Assembly: GCF_000238775.2 (NCBI RefSeq)
Contig: NZ_AFEJ02000001.1
Coordinates: forward strand, 3,968,001 to 4,032,000
Length of the DNA: 64,000 nucleotides
Origin: Acaryochloris sp. CCMEE 5410
Lineage (GTDB): Bacteria > Cyanobacteriota > Cyanobacteriia > Thermosynechococcales > Thermosynechococcaceae
Direction of reading: 5' to 3'
The position numbers and the translations under genes were made by a program. The notes below the pieces were generated by a model, which did not search any database, was not told where the DNA came from, and saw nothing but the letters and a program-made list of their open reading frames with translations. Positions 1 through 21,126 of this stretch are shown here, one piece after another (within the stretch, counting starts at the first letter, position 1; the number at the start of each line of letters is the position of its first letter).

Positions 1-1179
1 ATTAACGACCGGTTGGGTCACCTTATGGGCGACAAAGTGTTGATTCAGGTTGCCAATCGCCTGTCCACTTTGGCCGGTGATGCAACCTGCCTGGCTCGTT
101 TGGGGGGAGACGAATTCGTGTTGCTAACGGGGCAACTGACGGTCGCTGAAGCCTACAAACTGGCTCAGAACATCACGGCTACCTTTGCTCAACCCCTGCG
201 CATTCGCGAGACCGAAATCCCCATGTCGGCGAGTGTTGGCATCGTCTTAGGGGATGCATCCTATCAATCTGCGGATGACGTCGTTCGGGATGCTGATATT
301 GCCATGTATCGCGCTAAAGCAACGGGAAATTGCTATCAATTCTTCGACGAAAGAATGCGGACAGAGTATTTAGAAGGCTTGGAACTAGAACGAGAATTAG
401 AAACCGCTGTGCGGGAGAAACAGTTCCGCGTCAATTTTGAACCCATTATTGATATCCATCAGTCCGACATCTACTCGATTGAGTCGCTAGTGCGCTGGAT
501 TCATCCCGACAAGGGCATGATCTCGCCCGGCCGCTTTATTCCCCTGGCAGAAGAATTAGGGCTAGTGATAGATATCGACCGAATTGTCTTCGAGCAAACT
601 TGTAAGCAGTTTCGTCAATGGCGGGCTAGCGGCATCACCCGTCCTCAACAGAAGTTCAATGTCAATCTGTCCTGTGGCCAGCTGGAACGATCCGATATTA
701 TCCCCTTCCTCCTCAGCACTATTGATGTATCCGGTATCAGCCCCCACGACGTTGTGCTGGAAATTACGGAGAGCTACTTGCTGGCAGACTCTGTCCTGGT
801 AATGAAGAATCTAAATGAAATGAACGAGTTGGGATTTAGCATTTTTGTGGATGACTTTGGAACGGGATACTCATCCCTGAGTTATCTCGCCAAGTATCCC
901 ATCCACGGCATTAAGATTGATCGAAGTTTTGTCAGAGATCTGACAGAAAGCCCGGAAAGCAAAGAGTTAATTCGCTCTATGATTGCCATGGCCGATGCGT
1001 TGAATCTGCAAGTGGTGACTGAAGGGGTAGAAACCCTAGAGCAATTGCAGATCATGACGGAACTGGGCTGCCGCTATATTCAAGGCTTCTTATTTACACG
1101 CCCGATGAATGCCATGCAGGCCGCATCGTTTTTGGTGGATCAGCCGTATCGAGAGGTAGGTGCGATCGCACCCATGTAG
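1..1179 (+). CDS. GGDEF/EAL cyclic-di-GMP signalling protein (3' part)
   Basis: The gene enters from the left edge: in-frame codons upstream of the first possible start read INDRLGH, the conserved beginning of a GGDEF domain, so the true start lies outside. The GGDEF signature RLGGDEF is intact (diguanylate cyclase), but I see no RxxD inhibitory site five residues before it. An EAL phosphodiesterase domain follows, with the signature written ESLVRW rather than EALLRW; the glutamate is kept, as are EITE, DDFGTG and KID motifs. It probably makes and/or degrades c-di-GMP; net activity cannot be read. N-terminal sensory domains are not visible here. Confidence 0.93.
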   Translation: MNDRLGHLMGDKVLIQVANRLSTLAGDATCLARLGGDEFVLLTGQLTVAEAYKLAQNITATFAQPLRIRETEIPMSASVGIVLGDASYQSADDVVRDADIAMYRAKATGNCYQFFDERMRTEYLEGLELERELETAVREKQFRVNFEPIIDIHQSDIYSIESLVRWIHPDKGMISPGRFIPLAEELGLVIDIDRIVFEQTCKQFRQWRASGITRPQQKFNVNLSCGQLERSDIIPFLLSTIDVSGISPHDVVLEITESYLLADSVLVMKNLNEMNELGFSIFVDDFGTGYSSLSYLAKYPIHGIKIDRSFVRDLTESPESKELIRSMIAMADALNLQVVTEGVETLEQLQIMTELGCRYIQGFLFTRPMNAMQAASFLVDQPYREVGAIAPM

Positions 1180-1247
1180 CACGAACCTGAAGACTCCACA
1201 CAGGCTATGAGAGAGGTCACCCAAACTCATCATCAACCGGTGATGTT

Positions 1248-1643
1248 TCAAGACGAGACTTTATCGTCAGCAACGGATTCTTCAACGCTGAAGACGGTCA
1301 AATTCAGGGGGACTGATTCACCCAGCCAAGATGCATGGGTCGTGTGATCCGCTAAATCATTACCCGTTAAGGCATGGACAAAGACTGTTAAATCGTTACG
1401 ATTCTCTTCCAGCCACGGAATCAGTCGATCAAACTGGTCCTTACCAAAAGAAAGCTGACAGCTCCATCGAGGATGTGGCCCTACCAACTTTTGGTGAACT
1501 CGGCCCACCTGAATATCAAATCGCTCGCCTGCTTGGTGGCAAATAGATGAGGCTAACTCTACCGAGTCTGCGTCGAAATAGACATGGGCATGATAGTGGT
1601 CGTAATCGTTAGTCGGCCGCTTGGGGAGTGGAGAAGAAGGCAT
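1248..1643 (-). CDS. DOPA 4,5-dioxygenase family protein
   Basis: A 131-residue protein with the N-terminal motif YDHYHAHVYFD, a histidine-rich first strand typical of the DOPA 4,5-dioxygenase (aromatic ring-cleaving) family, and a later HPRWSCQLSF block also typical of it. Family members open catechol rings of DOPA-like compounds extradiol-fashion; the cyanobacterial substrate is unknown to me. It lies on the minus strand, convergent with the GGDEF/EAL gene, and begins a run of small minus-strand genes with gaps that suggest separate transcription. Length matches small bacterial family members. Confidence 0.8.
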   Translation of the reverse strand: MPSSPLPKRPTNDYDHYHAHVYFDADSVELASSICHQAGERFDIQVGRVHQKLVGPHPRWSCQLSFGKDQFDRLIPWLEENRNDLTVFVHALTGNDLADHTTHASWLGESVPLNLTVFSVEESVADDKVSS

Positions 1644-1711
1644 GGCACTGTAGAACTTGCTAAATGGACTAGGACTCGTCGGTCTTGTACCGTAAAGGAT
1701 TGGATGGCCCC

Positions 1712-2308
1712 TTAAACCGTATTTATCAGCTCCTCATATTCTTGCGAACTCAGTATTTGAGGAGTGGTGATGGGCAAACCAGAGTCCACTTTGAAGAAGG
1801 GCGTCTGTTGATAACTGCCATCGATACGTGCTTTCAGGATCATCAGCAGATTACGAATAATCGCTTTGACCTGACCCGTGGGCTTGGGCTTAGGATCTCC
1901 TTTGGCACCTGCTGTATTGACGTGGGCGCTTTCGGAGTTGCAGATGCCATCCAGTTTGACATCAGAAGATTCCAAGCAATTATGAACCACACCAACAAAG
2001 GACATCCTATGGCTCGGTAACGTATTGCCGATGGGAGTGTTGCAGCACGTGGTATACCAACGCAATAGCCCCGTTGCTGTCAGGCGCATACAGGCCAAAT
2101 ATTCGCCCCCTTGATCAAACGAGATATGCTTTGGCAGCATCTGAACGATCTCTGTGCCCCCCTGAGGGTCGAGAATTTCATTACTTCTGCCCAGGAAATG
2201 CGCAAATGCCTGACAGTCCCGACAATAACAGGTCACTCGGTTGATATTTTTAGGACGATTAACACGCCCTTGAACACGTCCACATTGACATTGGATGGAA
2301 TAAGCCAT
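1712..2308 (-). CDS. DUF6151 family protein (GFA-like zinc fold)
   Basis: A 198-residue protein. Cysteines near the N-terminus (CQCG, then CYCRDCQAF) and a later CCNTPIGN motif resemble the zinc-binding pattern of glutathione-dependent formaldehyde-activating (GFA/Mss4-like) folds. The blocks FLGR, GGTEIVQ, GLLRWYTTCC and IGNTLPSHRMSFVG match my memory of DUF6151. An SD-like purine run (GGAGAAGTAAAG) lies just before the ATG. Function is not established; a redox or thiol-adduct enzyme is possible by fold only. Confidence 0.75.
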   Translation of the reverse strand: MAYSIQCQCGRVQGRVNRPKNINRVTCYCRDCQAFAHFLGRSNEILDPQGGTEIVQMLPKHISFDQGGEYLACMRLTATGLLRWYTTCCNTPIGNTLPSHRMSFVGVVHNCLESSDVKLDGICNSESAHVNTAGAKGDPKPKPTGQVKAIIRNLLMILKARIDGSYQQTPFFKVDSGLPITTPQILSSQEYEELINTV

Positions 2309-2407
2309 TCTTTACTTCTCCGCAGAACTGAGCAACTGGTTGAAAGATAGCTATGGCTGGGAACCTCAAGCACCAAATCAGGAAATGACAAATATTATTG
2401 GATGCAG

Positions 2408-2785
2408 CTAGATGGTTTTAGGCAGTACAGCACAAAGTTCCAGCGCATGACCATCGGGGTCTTCAAAATAGACTGACTTCGCCGGAATCCAATCATGGAC
2501 GATGGGACCTTCCAAGGCAATGCCATTCTCCCGAAGCTGTTGTGCCGATTGCTCTATTTCAGATTCACGAACCGTGAACGCGAAATGTTGTGTAGGCCAG
2601 TGTCCCTGGTCCTCTTGCAACACGATCATGCCAGAGGAATCACCAGTTCGTAGAAATAGCCAGTTGCGCTGTTCATCTCGAAGACCCACTTTTAGGCCGA
2701 GGAGCTGACAGTAAAATGTCTCTGCCCTAGCGAGGTCGCGGACACGGATCGCAACTTCGTAAACACCGCGGATGGGAATCATCAA
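2408..2785 (-). CDS. VOC family protein (glyoxalase/bleomycin-resistance fold)
   Basis: A 125-residue protein with the two-module betaalphabetabetabeta pattern of the vicinal-oxygen-chelate superfamily: VRDLARAETFYCQLLGLKVG in the first half and YFEDPDGHALEL at the C-terminus. Possible metal-ligand positions remain in the QHFAF and HALEL segments, but the usual first-strand histidine is not evident. Members include glyoxalase I, dioxygenases and antibiotic-binding proteins; the substrate cannot be inferred. The initiator is one of two adjacent ATG codons. Confidence 0.85.
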   Translation of the reverse strand: MMIPIRGVYEVAIRVRDLARAETFYCQLLGLKVGLRDEQRNWLFLRTGDSSGMIVLQEDQGHWPTQHFAFTVRESEIEQSAQQLRENGIALEGPIVHDWIPAKSVYFEDPDGHALELCAVLPKTI

Positions 2786-14610: not shown

Positions 14611-15630
14611 ATGAGTCAGATTCAGATCGAAAGTGATTTAAGCCATGCTGATTTACTGCAGCTTGTCTGCCGTGGTTCTGATGTTTGGAATCAGTGGCGT
14701 ACTGAAAACTCCCATAAGAGTATTAACCTGCCTCTGGCAGACCTCAGCAATGCCAGCCTTAGCAATGCCAATCTCAGCCATATCAACTTCAGCTTTGCCA
14801 TCCTCGAAGGGGCCGATCTAAGTGGCGCTGATCTCAGAGGTACCGATCTGAGTGAAGCGAATCTAAATAATGCCCACCTTGCCCGTGCCAATCTCAAAGG
14901 TGCCAAAATTTTGGATGAAACGCAGATTGATCCGAAATGGAGGTTAGTCCATGCATTAGTGACAGAAGGTGGAGAAAGTAAAGATCTCTGCAACGTTAAC
15001 CTGCGTGCCGCCAATCTGCGGGATGCCATTCTCAGCAGTGCTGATCTAAGTGGGGCGAACCTCAGTTGGTCTGACCTTTGCGAGGCTAACCTCAGTGATG
15101 CCATCTTGAGGGATGCGAATCTGATTTTGGCGATGCTTGAACGTGCCAATCTCAATGGTGCGAACCTCAGCAATGCCAATCTTCGCACTGCGAACTTGAG
15201 TTATACCAACCTCAGCAGTGCAGACCTCTTCGGTGCTGATCTGTTTGTTGCCAACTTGAGCAGTGCCAACCTGCGAGAAGCTGACTTCAATGGTGCGAAC
15301 CTCAGCAACGCTAACTTGGATAGTGCCGACCTCAGCAATGCGAATCTCAGCAATGCCAACCTGATCGGTGCCGATCTGAGTCATGTGAATCTCAGCAACG
15401 CCAGTCTCCGAGGCTCTAACTTCAGCAATGCGAATCTCAGCAATGCCAACCTAGACGGTGCCGACTTGAGCAATGCTAATTTCCGAGGAACGAACCTCAG
15501 TGGTGCGAATCTCAGCAATGCCAATCTGATCGACGCCGATCTTTTGGATGCTAACCTCTTCAATGCCACCCTCGATGGTATTGACCTTTTTGAGACTACG
15601 CTCACGACATCAACTGGCGTCAGGCGATGA
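14611..15630 (+). CDS. Pentapeptide-repeat protein
   Basis: A 339-residue protein. Residues about 1-40 are a non-repeat cap (LLQLVCRGSDVWNQWR). Two pentapeptide blocks of the A(D/N)LSN type follow: residues about 42-97 and 130-325, separated by a non-repeat linker with DETQIDPKWRLVHALVTEGG. Such repeats fold as a right-handed quadrilateral beta-helix; two stacks hinged by the linker are expected. The leading helix plus two helices is a layout common in cyanobacteria. Some family members mimic DNA and bind gyrase, most have no known role. The opposite strand carries long shadow frames from the repeats. Confidence 0.92.
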   Translation: MSQIQIESDLSHADLLQLVCRGSDVWNQWRTENSHKSINLPLADLSNASLSNANLSHINFSFAILEGADLSGADLRGTDLSEANLNNAHLARANLKGAKILDETQIDPKWRLVHALVTEGGESKDLCNVNLRAANLRDAILSSADLSGANLSWSDLCEANLSDAILRDANLILAMLERANLNGANLSNANLRTANLSYTNLSSADLFGADLFVANLSSANLREADFNGANLSNANLDSADLSNANLSNANLIGADLSHVNLSNASLRGSNFSNANLSNANLDGADLSNANFRGTNLSGANLSNANLIDADLLDANLFNATLDGIDLFETTLTTSTGVRR

Positions 15631-18273: not shown

Positions 18274-18318
18274 CGATCAGATAACGCTGCTGCTGAATCT
18301 GTGTCTTCAAAACATTCA

Positions 18319-18351
18319 GTCGTCAGGCATAGCAGCTGCATGCCTGACGAC
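18319..18351. terminator. Hairpin between convergent genes
   Basis: A perfect 12-bp stem, GTCGTCAGGCAT (18319-18330) with ATGCCTGACGAC (18340-18351), loop of nine bases. It lies between the stop of the small plus-strand gene and the stop of the minus-strand flavodoxin-like gene, so it can serve both. No clear T-run follows on either strand. Confidence 0.6.
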
Positions 18352-18362
18352 CGCCATTAGCT

Positions 18363-19121
18363 CTATCGTTTATGCTCTGGATTCTTAAAGTCTGTTTTAC
18401 ACCCTGCATCCCAGGCATCCGGTAAATTGCCGTGGGCAGGAATTCCGCCATTGTCCTTCAGTAGGCGAGCCATATGCATACAGTTCCAGGCTAAGAAAGT
18501 GGTATTGCGGTTGGTGAAATCATTCTCGGGTCCCCCTGATCCTGGATCGAGATAAGAAGGGCCGGGACCGACTTCCCCTAGCCAACCAGCATCCACTTGG
18601 GGTGGAATGGTATAGCCAATATGAGAGAGGGAAAACAGAATATTCATGGCGCAATGTTTTACTCCGTCCTCATTGCCTGTGATTAAGGTTGCGCCTACTT
18701 TGCCGTAATCTCGATATTGGCCTTTGTCGTTGAGGAGATGGGTGTAGCCATACATTCGCTCCAAAACTCGGTTACAAACGGAGCTTTTCTCCCCCAGCCA
18801 CACGGAGGTACACAGCACCAAAATATCTGTGGTATCCACTTCTTTCTGAATTTGAGGCCAGTCATCTTTATCCCATTCATCGGTTTGGGACATATCTAAG
18901 CCCAAGCCCGCCGGTATATCATAATCCACGGGACGAATAATCTTCGTTTCCACCCCATTGGCTTCAAAAATCCTTTGGGCAATCTTAATTACCCCTTCGG
19001 TATGGGATAAAACGGGGGTGCGATTGAGGGTGCAGTTGAGAAATAGGGCCTTGAGATCGTCATATTTGGCTGGGGCGTTTTGGCATTGGTGCTGAGTGAT
19101 GTTTGTAAGCTGTTCAGACAT
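18363..19121 (-). CDS. Flavodoxin-fold NAD(P)H-dependent oxidoreductase
   Basis: About 252 residues from the ATG with AAGAGGA upstream (the frame is open to 19151). DLKALFLNCTLNRTPVLSHTE resembles the FMN-phosphate loop of NADPH-dependent FMN reductases, and DILVLCTSVWLGEKSSVCNRVLERM is the second flavin-binding region; TLITGNEDGVKHCAMNIL continues the fold. It likely binds FMN and shuttles electrons. It begins 52 bases after the Rieske-ThDP gene on the same strand, so the two are probably co-transcribed and may be functional partners. Confidence 0.82.
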   Translation of the reverse strand: MSEQLTNITQHQCQNAPAKYDDLKALFLNCTLNRTPVLSHTEGVIKIAQRIFEANGVETKIIRPVDYDIPAGLGLDMSQTDEWDKDDWPQIQKEVDTTDILVLCTSVWLGEKSSVCNRVLERMYGYTHLLNDKGQYRDYGKVGATLITGNEDGVKHCAMNILFSLSHIGYTIPPQVDAGWLGEVGPGPSYLDPGSGGPENDFTNRNTTFLAWNCMHMARLLKDNGGIPAHGNLPDAWDAGCKTDFKNPEHKR

Positions 19122-19173
19122 AATTCCTCTTGCATAGGTGTATGTGTTCAAAAGTGCAGCCGAGCCAGAACGC

Positions 19174-21126
19174 CTAAATCAATTCTGGGTCAGACATGAT
19201 TTCTACGAGGGCAGGCCCCTGATAAGCCAGGGCCTGGGCCATGGCATCATCCAGTTCGTCCAGTTGGGTAACTCGGATCCCGAATCCACCGCAATTCTGA
19301 GCATATTGGGAAAAATCAGGATTGTGTAAGGAGGTTTGCCAGACATCCCATTCTCCCGCTCTCTGCTCCTTAGAAATTTTGCCCAACTGATCGTTATGAA
19401 GGAGGATATGGGTGATATTCATCTGGTACTTCACGGCAGTGGTAAATTCCGCCAAATATTGTCCAAACCCACCATCTCCAGACACAGAAACAATCGGGCG
19501 TTGATGGCCTGCAGCCGCCCAAGCACCCATGGCAGCCGGGAAGGCAAACCCGATGGACCCGAGATATCCCGACATTAAAACGGACTGGGTCTGACACTCA
19601 AAATAGCGACCAAAGGAATAGGTATTGTTACCCACATCCACCGCAATGACAGCATGAGCGGGAACCCATCGCGTCATGGCGGCAAAAATAGCGGCGGAGT
19701 TTAGTCCTTCCCCTCGGTTATCGAGTTCTCGACGGGCTTTTTCTGCCCGCCAGATAGCCCAACGTTCGGCGATTTCAGACTGCACATCTTCTGTCTTCAC
19801 CTGCCCCGTGAGGGCGGTCTTGAGCTGCTCCACCACAATACTAATTTCTCCCCAAACAGGTACTTCGATGGGATGAAATTTACCTAGGGCCAGCGGATCA
19901 AAATCCACCTGAATAATCGGTTTACCCGGATAGATGCCCGTGTGGTTGGAAAAAGAAGCCCCCAACACCAGCAGCACATCCGCCTCATTCATAAACCAGC
20001 TGGCAATGGGAGTGCCGCTGCGCCCCAATACCCCACATCCCAGGGGATGGTCATCGGCAATCTGTCCTTTCCCTTTAAAGGTCGTTAGGACGGGCGCACC
20101 CAAAAGTTCAGCCAGTTCTATCACCGCAGGCATATGAAACCGAGCGCCATGACCCACAATAATGACTGGGCGGCGAGATTGTTTCAGTTTGTTAATGGCC
20201 TGCTGTAAAGATTCCGGGGGTGGCGCGATTTGCAGCGGGGTAATACGTCCGGTGGGTGTTGCTGCAGGCACATCAACAGCAGGCTGGACTTGAATCTCAT
20301 CGGGGAAGATTAGGTGAGAGACATTGCGTTCTAGGAGGGCATGCTTGATGGCCAGGGTCATCAATTCGGCATGCTTGCTGTGACTGAGGACCGTTTGACT
20401 CCAAGCCGCCACTCCACTAAAGGCGGCAGATAAATCACATTCTTGAAAGTTACCAGTTCCCAAGACTTGAGAGTTGACCTGTCCGGTTAAGGCCAAGATG
20501 GGGGCGCGATCGACTTTGGCATCCCACATTCCGGTTAGCAGGTTGGTGGCACCGGGGCCAGCAATGGTCAAACAGGCAGCGGGGGTCCCCGTAAGTTTGG
20601 CATAGGCGGAGGCGGCAAAGGCCGCGGCTCCTTCATGGCGAATACCAATATAGGTGAGCTTGCCCTGTTCTTCTTGACGGCGTAGGGCATCAGCCAGTCC
20701 TAAATTTGAATGACCCACCATACCAAACACATGGGTAACGCCCCAATTCACCATGGTTTCAGCCATGACATCGCTAACGGTGCGGATGTGCGGTTTTTCC
20801 ACGGGTAAACCCACATAGATACCGTCATCACGCACCTCAACCGGGAAGGTTTCGAGGGCATCATCGACCTCCAAGTCACCGGGCGGTTGACCTGTCAGTG
20901 GGCAATAATCCCACCCATGCCAAGGACAGCGCAACAGGCCATTTTCAATAGAGCCTTCGCCGAGGGGGCCGCCTTGATGGGGACAGCGATTATCAAGAGC
21001 ACCATATTGGCCTTGGTGATGGGTTAAGGCCAGACTTTTATGACCTGCAACGACGGTTTTGACCCGACCTTCGGGTAGTTCGTCTAGGTCTAAGACCCGA
21101 AACCACTCAGGGGTTATCTCAGGCAT
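19174..21126 (-). CDS. Rieske [2Fe-2S] domain fused to a ThDP-dependent enzyme
   Basis: A 650-residue fusion with a clear SD (AAGGAG). Residues about 5-108 are a Rieske ferredoxin: ligands Cys48, His50, Cys67 and His70 in CPHQG and CPWHGW. Residues about 115-650 form an acetolactate synthase/pyruvate oxidase-type enzyme: catalytic glutamate in RHEGAAAFAASAYAKLTG (Glu164-165), the PYR domain through about 280, a central domain (VIIVGHGARFH), and the PP domain with GDGGFGQYLAEF and HND at the Mg-ThDP site. It is likely to decarboxylate a 2-oxo acid, with the cluster passing electrons onward. Substrate unknown. The downstream flavodoxin-like gene fits as an electron acceptor. Confidence 0.9.
   Translation of the reverse strand: MPEITPEWFRVLDLDELPEGRVKTVVAGHKSLALTHHQGQYGALDNRCPHQGGPLGEGSIENGLLRCPWHGWDYCPLTGQPPGDLEVDDALETFPVEVRDDGIYVGLPVEKPHIRTVSDVMAETMVNWGVTHVFGMVGHSNLGLADALRRQEEQGKLTYIGIRHEGAAAFAASAYAKLTGTPAACLTIAGPGATNLLTGMWDAKVDRAPILALTGQVNSQVLGTGNFQECDLSAAFSGVAAWSQTVLSHSKHAELMTLAIKHALLERNVSHLIFPDEIQVQPAVDVPAATPTGRITPLQIAPPPESLQQAINKLKQSRRPVIIVGHGARFHMPAVIELAELLGAPVLTTFKGKGQIADDHPLGCGVLGRSGTPIASWFMNEADVLLVLGASFSNHTGIYPGKPIIQVDFDPLALGKFHPIEVPVWGEISIVVEQLKTALTGQVKTEDVQSEIAERWAIWRAEKARRELDNRGEGLNSAAIFAAMTRWVPAHAVIAVDVGNNTYSFGRYFECQTQSVLMSGYLGSIGFAFPAAMGAWAAAGHQRPIVSVSGDGGFGQYLAEFTTAVKYQMNITHILLHNDQLGKISKEQRAGEWDVWQTSLHNPDFSQYAQNCGGFGIRVTQLDELDDAMAQALAYQGPALVEIMSDPELI

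What the first reader, a model, noticed from the sequence alone, without database searches (positions are those of the whole stretch)
19174..21126. Rieske ferredoxin fused to the N-terminus of a ThDP decarboxylase
All four Rieske ligands (Cys48, His50, Cys67, His70) and the ThDP catalytic Glu and GDG...ND motifs are intact in a single 650-residue chain. ThDP enzymes of this fold usually use FAD or no redox partner; an in-line [2Fe-2S] cluster suggests that oxidation of the decarboxylation intermediate feeds electrons into the cluster. A flavodoxin-like protein is encoded 52 bases downstream on the same strand, a natural next carrier.
Basis: partly seen in the sequence, partly recalled or inferred. 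Interest (0 to 1): 0.68.

Follow-up and report, generated by a model that had tools for sequence, protein, structure and literature searches.

The report
Rieske-fused pyruvate-oxidase-like enzyme family
A cyanobacterial gene fuses an electron-carrying iron-sulphur (Rieske) domain to a vitamin-B1-dependent enzyme; the same unnamed fusion, strongly conserved, turns up in many bacterial phyla and in salt-loving archaea, often near other Rieske-bearing redox proteins, and so probably marks an undescribed electron-transfer route.

Summary
In detail: one intact 650-aa ORF on the MINUS strand (21126..19174), Rieske at residues 7-81 and a complete POX/AHAS-type ThDP enzyme at 116-643. It is not a one-off. 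The 80 best relatives (of 457 candidates; the rest not seen) are the same fusion, 65-97% identical, in 18 named phyla/candidate phyla; five plasmids (four haloarchaea, one mycobacterium) carry it at 57-65%. Rieske ligands, catalytic Glu and GDG..N are invariant in 81 of 81. The nearest unfused relatives seen are ~35% identical. The fold is closest, narrowly, to truncated E. coli PoxB, but F lacks PoxB's C-terminal tail and has Lys (81 of 81) for PoxB Phe465. The downstream flavodoxin-like gene is linked in only 10 of 81 loci, so it is not the general partner. Best reading: a Rieske-coupled 2-oxo-acid oxidoreductase tied to that membrane protein. Substrate, flavin and electron direction are undetermined.

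The parts
19174..21126 (-). Rieske-ThDP fusion gene ('F'), 650 aa, ATG start at 21126
20884..21108 (-). Rieske [2Fe-2S] domain, residues 7-81; ligands Cys48 (20985-20983), His50 (20979-20977), Cys67 (20928-20926), His70 (20919-20917)
   Evidence: Pfam PF00355 60.7 bits; ligands invariant in 81 of 81; nearest solved: T4moC 1vm9, BphF 1fqt
20428..20781 (-). ThDP enzyme N-terminal (PYR) domain, residues 116-233, with Glu165 (= PoxB Glu50 by the alignment) and His139 (= PoxB Asp27)
   Evidence: PF02776; alignment to 3eya; both invariant in 81 of 81
19822..20208 (-). ThDP enzyme middle domain, residues 307-435 (the FAD/ADP-binding domain in relatives; ligand here untested)
   Evidence: PF00205
19198..19638 (-). 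ThDP enzyme C-terminal (PP) domain, residues 497-643, GDG(550-552)...N578; Lys583 at the position of PoxB Phe465
   Evidence: PF02775; alignment to 3eya; invariant in 81 of 81
18363..19121 (-). FMN_red/flavodoxin-fold protein ('FMNr'), 252 aa from ATG at 19121 (262 aa if from the TTG at 19151); AGAGGA just upstream of the ATG
   Evidence: PF03358 32.3 bits, cut-off 24; nearest solved 5mji 'BRAMP domain protein'; sequence; linked to F in 10 of 81 loci
18317..18353 (-). terminator-like hairpin, 15 pairs, just after FMNr
   Evidence: consensus match only; number of such sites in the stretch is not above shuffles; tail AATGTTTTGA is weak

Best explanation
F is a cytosolic ThDP enzyme of the pyruvate-oxidase/PoxB fold that oxidises (decarboxylates) a 2-oxo acid or a related carbonyl substrate. 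Electrons from the ThDP-bound carbanion/enamine leave one at a time through its own N-terminal Rieske [2Fe-2S] cluster, directly or via a flavin in the middle domain. In many lineages the next carrier is a ferric-reductase-like (haem-type) membrane protein with a C-terminal, probably cytosolic Rieske domain (FRD), which would link to the quinone pool; this replaces the tail with which PoxB meets the membrane. A second Rieske fusion (Rieske + GltS-type FMN/[3Fe-4S] domain, GS) uses the same chain in many organisms; in the window's genome GS is absent and a flavodoxin-fold protein is encoded directly after F. Shown: the fusion, invariant ligands and motifs, conservation, neighbours, co-occurrence; predicted: fold. 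Inferred: redox role, direction, partners, quinone link. Guessed: substrate (invariant His139 and Lys583 suggest an anionic substrate, possibly a dicarboxylic 2-oxo acid).
For: Ligands and catalytic motifs invariant in 81 of 81, mean column identity 72% in 31 rows: cluster and active site under strong constraint. Fold: best VIA match C-terminally truncated PoxB 3eya_D, Z 40.7, 516 aligned, rmsd 2.8, with BbmA 8xod/8x3x (39.7, 39.6), CsmA 8x3z (39.0) and PQO 9ev6 (38.8) close behind; best NCBIfam score is pyruvate oxidase PRK08611, 395 bits against 310 for the next. The Rieske part resembles soluble Rieske ferredoxins. F ends about where PoxB's tail begins (alignment to PoxB residue 527 of 572). 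FRD is linked in 13 of 81 loci; in 199 genomes of the Acidobacteriota sample it is in 13 of 14 with F and 5 of 185 without; in 292 cyanobacteria it is in the only F-bearing genome (the window's own) and 3 of 291 others. Of the Rieske matches in the window's genome, FRD's scores best against F (68 bits). GS lies within 6 kb in 41 of 81 loci (40 on the same strand, 40 upstream, 32 within 400 bp) and elsewhere in 22 of 39 genomes without linked GS. 126 unassigned neighbours show no recurrent Pfam family (at most 3 of 126).
Against: No experiment; substrate unknown. FRD was found in only 26 of 49 F-bearing genomes searched (mostly MAGs, completeness not given), not in 5 of the 13 cyanobacterial ones among them, and also in genomes without F, so the link is not obligatory. 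PoxB Phe465 (recalled as near FAD/ThDP) is Lys583 here, and F is under the curated cut-off of each of the 25 NCBIfam models shown (of 58 matched). AHAS, HACL and HKA-synthase structures, not described as oxidases, match nearly as well, so a carboligase is not excluded. Retention of the FAD pocket was not tested. The model has pLDDT < 50 at 221-231 and 582-588, loops that include Lys583. In the Acidobacteriota sample GS is in only 8 of 14 F genomes.
Confidence: 0.45

Rival explanations
1. Non-oxidative ThDP carboligase/lyase (AHAS-, HACL- or HKA-synthase-like); the Rieske domain serves as a redox sensor or a structural/regulatory cap.
For: AHAS-, HACL- and HKA-synthase structures are nearly as close in fold; PoxB Phe465 is replaced by Lys in 81 of 81.
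Against: All four cluster ligands are invariant; repeated linkage or co-occurrence with other Rieske, FMN and ferric-reductase-like proteins points to electron traffic.
Confidence: 0.25
2. Electron flow runs inwards: Rieske delivers electrons to the ThDP site or a flavin for a reductive or oxygen-activating reaction (detoxification or stress response). Linked cation/proton antiporters and flavodoxin-fold proteins recall the KefG/KefC electrophile-response pairing (recalled).
For: Antiporter within 6 kb in 11 of 81 loci and near F on the Halorarius and M. abscessus plasmids; genes annotated as merA, DsrE, peroxiredoxin or TauE near F on haloarchaeal plasmids.
Against: No substrate evidence; stress-like neighbours were only read from annotations of four plasmids; no such family recurs among the 126 other neighbours of the 80 loci.
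Confidence: 0.15
3. One reading: F passes electrons to the adjacent FMN protein as the main next carrier.
For: Same strand, 52-base gap; FMNr next to F in 9 cyanobacterial loci (window included) and one Solirubrobacteraceae MAG, and about 2 kb from F on an M. abscessus plasmid, 59% identical to the window's.
Against: FMNr in only 14 of 50 F genomes; so at most a lineage-specific partner.
Confidence: 0.2
4. Assembly or annotation artefact, or a one-off fusion.
For: None found.
Against: 81 of 81 loci from many assemblies keep one chain, plus plasmid records, four of the five at 62-65%.
Confidence: 0.01

Closest known systems
E. coli PoxB / C. glutamicum PQO (pyruvate:quinone oxidoreductase, FAD + ThDP)
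   Same: Three-domain ThDP fold over residues 114-650, Z 40.7 / 38.8; catalytic Glu and GDG..N.
   Different: F has an N-terminal Rieske domain, no counterpart of PoxB's last ~45 residues, Lys583 for Phe465, His139 for Asp27, about 24-27% identity; under the NCBIfam cut-offs.
BbmA/CsmA (ThDP-dependent HKA synthases), AHAS, 2-hydroxyacyl-CoA lyase/synthase
   Same: Fold nearly as close (Z about 37-39.7); 22-30% identity.
   Different: No Rieske domain in the matched chains; described as synthases/lyases, not oxidases.
Soluble Rieske-type ferredoxins of aromatic oxygenase systems (T4moC, BphF)
   Same: C-x-H...C-x-x-H ligands; closest solved relatives of residues 1-112.
   Different: Those are separate small proteins that feed oxygenases (recalled); here the domain is fused to a ThDP enzyme.
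PFOR/OFOR (2-oxo acid:ferredoxin oxidoreductases)
   Same: Works-like comparison only: ThDP plus an iron-sulphur electron exit.
   Different: Other domains and [4Fe-4S] clusters (recalled; abstract of PMC5020499); no such domain in F.
MsrQ / NOX-type ferric reductase domain proteins (for the partner FRD)
   Same: FRD has the PF01794 domain and weak MsrQ similarity (48 bits, cut-off 130).
   Different: FRD carries a C-terminal Rieske domain, and no FAD/NAD(P)H domain was detected in the four FRDs scanned.

Membership tests
PoxB/PQO pyruvate:quinone oxidoreductase | ThDP fold with catalytic Glu and GDG...N | tested here: met
PoxB/PQO pyruvate:quinone oxidoreductase | C-terminal membrane/lipid-binding tail | tested here: not met
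   Alignment ends at PoxB 527 of 572; F ends 5 residues later. The role of the tail is recalled
PoxB/PQO pyruvate:quinone oxidoreductase | Score above the curated NCBIfam cut-offs | tested here: not met
   PRK08611 395 vs 742; PRK09124 304.6 vs 792; PRK06457 304.5 vs 788
PoxB/PQO pyruvate:quinone oxidoreductase | Bound FAD | not testable with these tools
   Middle domain present (PF00205), but relatives bind FAD or ADP in this domain; no ligand prediction
Acetohydroxyacid synthase (AHAS/ALS) | Score above NCBIfam cut-offs for AHAS large subunits | tested here: not met
   TIGR00118 291 vs 538; PRK08322 283 vs 509 (25 of 58 matches shown)
Rieske-type [2Fe-2S] ferredoxin domain | Pfam Rieske above cut-off with CxH/CxxH ligands | tested here: met
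   60.7 vs 20.3 bits; ligands in 81 of 81
Rieske-type [2Fe-2S] ferredoxin domain | Assembled [2Fe-2S] cluster with Rieske spectrum | not testable with these tools
   needs purified protein
PFOR/OFOR | POR-type domains with [4Fe-4S] ferredoxin domain | tested here: not met
   only TPP_enzyme N/M/C and Rieske families
Glutamate synthase (partner GS) | FMN-binding GltS domain with [3Fe-4S] cysteines | tested here: met
   PF01645 in the three GS scanned; C-x5-C-x4-CP in 41 of 41 GS; the role of these Cys is recalled
Glutamate synthase (partner GS) | N-terminal glutaminase domain | tested here: not met
   Rieske domain instead; no amidotransferase family in the three GS scanned; about 540-570 aa

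The most novel reading that the evidence does not exclude
An undescribed 'multi-Rieske' redox module of bacteria and haloarchaea: unrelated cytosolic enzymes (a PoxB-fold ThDP oxidoreductase and a GltS-type FMN enzyme) each carry their own Rieske domain, by which they connect to one shared Rieske-tailed b-type membrane cytochrome, so that 2-oxo acid (and perhaps glutamate/2-oxoglutarate) oxidation feeds the quinone pool without NAD+ or free ferredoxin.
Probability: 0.3. Interest if true: 0.85.

Novelty: new variant of a known kind. Interest (0 to 1): 0.62.

Why it matters
ThDP enzymes of the POX/AHAS family are known to hand electrons to FAD, O2 or quinone (recalled); an in-line Rieske cluster would be a new electron exit. 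The family is strongly conserved (65-97% in the 80 relatives kept, from 18 named phyla/candidate phyla; 57-65% on plasmids of four haloarchaea and one mycobacterium), yet the plasmid annotation calls all five only 'thiamine pyrophosphate-binding protein', and six paper searches that paired 'Rieske' with ThDP-enzyme terms brought no description. The co-occurring Rieske-FMN and Rieske-membrane fusions make the question 'what runs through these Rieske domains' directly testable with four proteins.

Tried and rejected
Artefact or one-off fusion: rejected. Note that the 80 relatives are the best of 457 and were matched with the fusion as query, so '81 of 81' says nothing about the 377 not kept.

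Strict exclusion of FMNr and GS: suggested by loci (0 of 81 with both linked), rejected genome-wide: 3 of 14 FMNr-bearing genomes also have GS (G333, G319, G323).

GS in the window's own genome: only ordinary GltB-type matches (34-37%, frames of 1547 and 1569 aa) were found. DUF5996 (c2) is not in the window's genome.

The 1608-aa 'fusion' in L048 looks like read-through of a GC-rich upstream frame, not a real protein (judged by eye). ORFs named c4 lie antisense to F. In 4 of 41 GS rows no Rieske motif was found (L019, L023, L042, L052); all four are cut at a contig start (positions 1-2), so 37 of the 37 others have it.

In the Acidobacteriota GS count I dropped 4 of the 17 listed genomes (G413, G451, G505, G511; 43-49% identical, E 5.6e-91 to 1.2e-109); with them GS without F is 9 of 185 rather than 5. 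Three of the five kept (G342, G358, G372) align only from GS residue 136 on and may lack the Rieske domain. FRD counts include two partial matches without F, G525 and G529. Fisher p-values ignore the relatedness of genomes.

Substrate from neighbours: the 126 unassigned neighbours share no family (at most 3 of 126). The FAD-monooxygenase and creatininase genes downstream in the window (17654-16455, 16430-15663) were considered; in the nearest relative L009 the gene after FMNr is glycerol-3-phosphate dehydrogenase-like on the other strand, so I left them out. Folds: the VIA list holds only chains that match the ThDP part, so the Rieske part was tested by sequence only.

Papers: ten searches, four of them on partners (12, 40: the 5mji family; 53: FRD; 60: GS). 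Of the five papers listed, I read passages of four (PMC5676040, PMC6037941, PMC5020499, PMC10653896) and saw only the listing of PMC10326533; none of these passages describes the fusion.

Full report
Observation. The + strand of 19174-21126 does not read as a gene. The minus strand holds one ORF, 650 aa, ATG at 21126. Pfam finds Rieske at 7-81 and the complete ThDP enzyme (N 116-233, M 307-435, C 497-643), all above cut-off.

Conservation. One scan of genome contigs gave 457 candidates that encode a relative; the best 80 were kept and match over essentially the full length (from residue 1-10 to 648-650) at 65-97% identity of the best segment. The other 377 were not seen; one of the six search peptides lies in the Rieske domain, so not all of them need be fusions. 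In a 31-row alignment the mean column identity is 72%. In all 81 F sequences (80 + window) Cys48, His50, Cys67, His70, His139, Glu165, Phe227, Gln228, Gly550-Asp551-Gly552, Asn578, Lys583 and Glu587 are invariant. A tree of the 81 (quick search, SH-aLRT only) puts the 13 named cyanobacterial rows and the window in one clade (100) among 18 named phyla/groups; Acidobacteriota, Myxococcota and Planctomycetota are split. In plasmids, the five best of 124 matching records are the fusion at 57-65% (four haloarchaea, one Mycobacteroides abscessus); the next rows start at residue 115-116 and are at most 35% identical (15 of 124 rows listed). In 292 sampled cyanobacteria only the window's genome has the fusion; the other matches (E <= 1e-60) begin at residue 93 or later and are 28-34% identical. 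So the family looks discrete: I saw no unfused relative between about 36% and 57%.

Anatomy. NCBIfam's best score is pyruvate oxidase PRK08611 (395 bits, cut-off 742). AF2: pLDDT 87.1, pTM 0.85, but loops 221-231 and 582-588 are under 50. Foldseek ranks HACS, L. plantarum pyruvate oxidase and PoxB chains together; VIA ranks PoxB 3eya_D first (Z 40.7) with BbmA 8xod (39.7), CsmA 8x3z (39.0) and truncated PQO 9ev6 (38.8) close behind, so 'PoxB-like' rests on a narrow margin plus the NCBIfam score. The alignment gives Glu165 = PoxB Glu50, His139 = PoxB Asp27, Lys583 = PoxB Phe465, and F ends about where PoxB's C-terminal tail begins. That Phe465 lies near FAD/ThDP and that the tail binds lipid are recalled. 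The Rieske domain is nearest to T4moC and BphF, soluble Rieske ferredoxins (low potential: recalled); there is no extra Cys beside the ligands as in bc1-type Rieske proteins (sequence; the rule is recalled).

Neighbours. Iterated HMMs on the 80 loci plus window (counts within about 6 kb, above score limits): GS in 41 of 81 (40 on the same strand, 40 upstream, 32 within 400 bp), DUF5996 (c2; family) in 22, FRD 13, FRDb 13, c7 13, antiporter (PF00999) 11, FMNr 10, c8 5, p130 5, CA 4 (carbonic-anhydrase-like: name recalled). Several loci are cut by contig ends, so these are lower bounds. GS = Rieske + PF01645, also in two haloarchaeal plasmids; C-x5-C-x4-CP in 41 of 41, Rieske ligands in 37 of 37 rows not cut at a contig start. 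FRD = ferric-reductase-like membrane domain + Rieske, 7 invariant His outside the Rieske ligands in 14 rows (one gap per column allowed); my hydropathy scan found five clear membrane segments, where I expect six from the family (recalled); a cytosolic Rieske domain is my inference from loop charges. Control: 126 other neighbours within 1.2 kb of F (110 aa or more) share no Pfam family (at most 3 of 126).

Genome-wide. Of 39 genomes without linked GS, 22 have GS elsewhere (E < 1e-100); the 17 without include all ten cyanobacterial ones among the 39. FRD: 26 of 49 F genomes, 8 of the 13 cyanobacterial ones among them. FMNr: 14 of 50. Acidobacteriota (phylum of G303, 199 genomes): F 14; FRD 18, of which 13 with F; GS 13 at E < 1e-120, of which 8 with F (4 weaker rows dropped, see Tried and rejected); Fisher 1.4e-15 and 6.3e-8, not corrected for relatedness. 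Cyanobacteria, 292 genomes: FRD in 4, one of them the window's own. The window's genome has FRD about 1.7 Mb away on the same contig (L004), no Rieske-GS and no DUF5996.

Window operon. FMNr follows F by 52 bases with AGAGGA upstream of its ATG; a 15-pair hairpin follows FMNr, though such sites are no commoner here than in shuffles. An FMNr 59% identical to the window's lies about 2 kb from F on the M. abscessus plasmid, next to an antiporter gene. FMNr is thus a recurring but lineage-limited partner.

Reading. A conserved in-line Rieske domain on a PoxB-fold ThDP enzyme is well supported by sequence; that it exchanges electrons with a Rieske-tailed membrane protein is supported by co-occurrence only. 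Thermodynamically (recalled potentials) electron export from a ThDP intermediate to a Rieske cluster is easy. If GS keeps GltS chemistry it would act near the glutamate/2-oxoglutarate couple; this is conjecture.

Literature. Ten full-text searches of open PMC papers, six of them pairing Rieske with ThDP-enzyme terms, listed five papers; passages of four were read and none describes the fusion. Most subscription papers and all preprints are outside that library, so this is no proof of novelty.

Noticed in passing
L117, L120 (Salinirubellus and Halorarius plasmids); L116, L118: Haloarchaeal plasmids carry F with Rieske-GltS proteins (L117, L120) and a Na+/H+ antiporter (L120), amid genes annotated as merA, DsrE, TauE, peroxiredoxin or sensor kinase; may be a redox/stress island.
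   Followed up: partly
L041, L066, L070, L040 (Nitrospirota): A carbonic-anhydrase-like protein gene follows F directly in 4 loci (name recalled, no family search).
   Followed up: no
L004:2562-3083(-), 1477-2538(-), 710-1474(-): Three-gene set in the window's genome: 173-aa protein, FRD-Rieske, 254-aa protein; the first and last have no Pfam match. FRDb proteins accompany FRD in other phyla.
   Followed up: partly
G181, G189, G221 (cyanobacterial family f19): FRD-Rieske matches in three sampled cyanobacteria without F; FRD must have other partners there.
   Followed up: no
L005:103-1821(-): A 572-aa protein in the window's genome whose start matches F's Rieske domain (40% over residues 10-109), fused to a long region that is not the ThDP enzyme.
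   Followed up: no
window 14611-15630(+): 339-aa protein of pentapeptide-like repeats (A[N/D]LSNANL), seen in the ORF list only.
   Followed up: no
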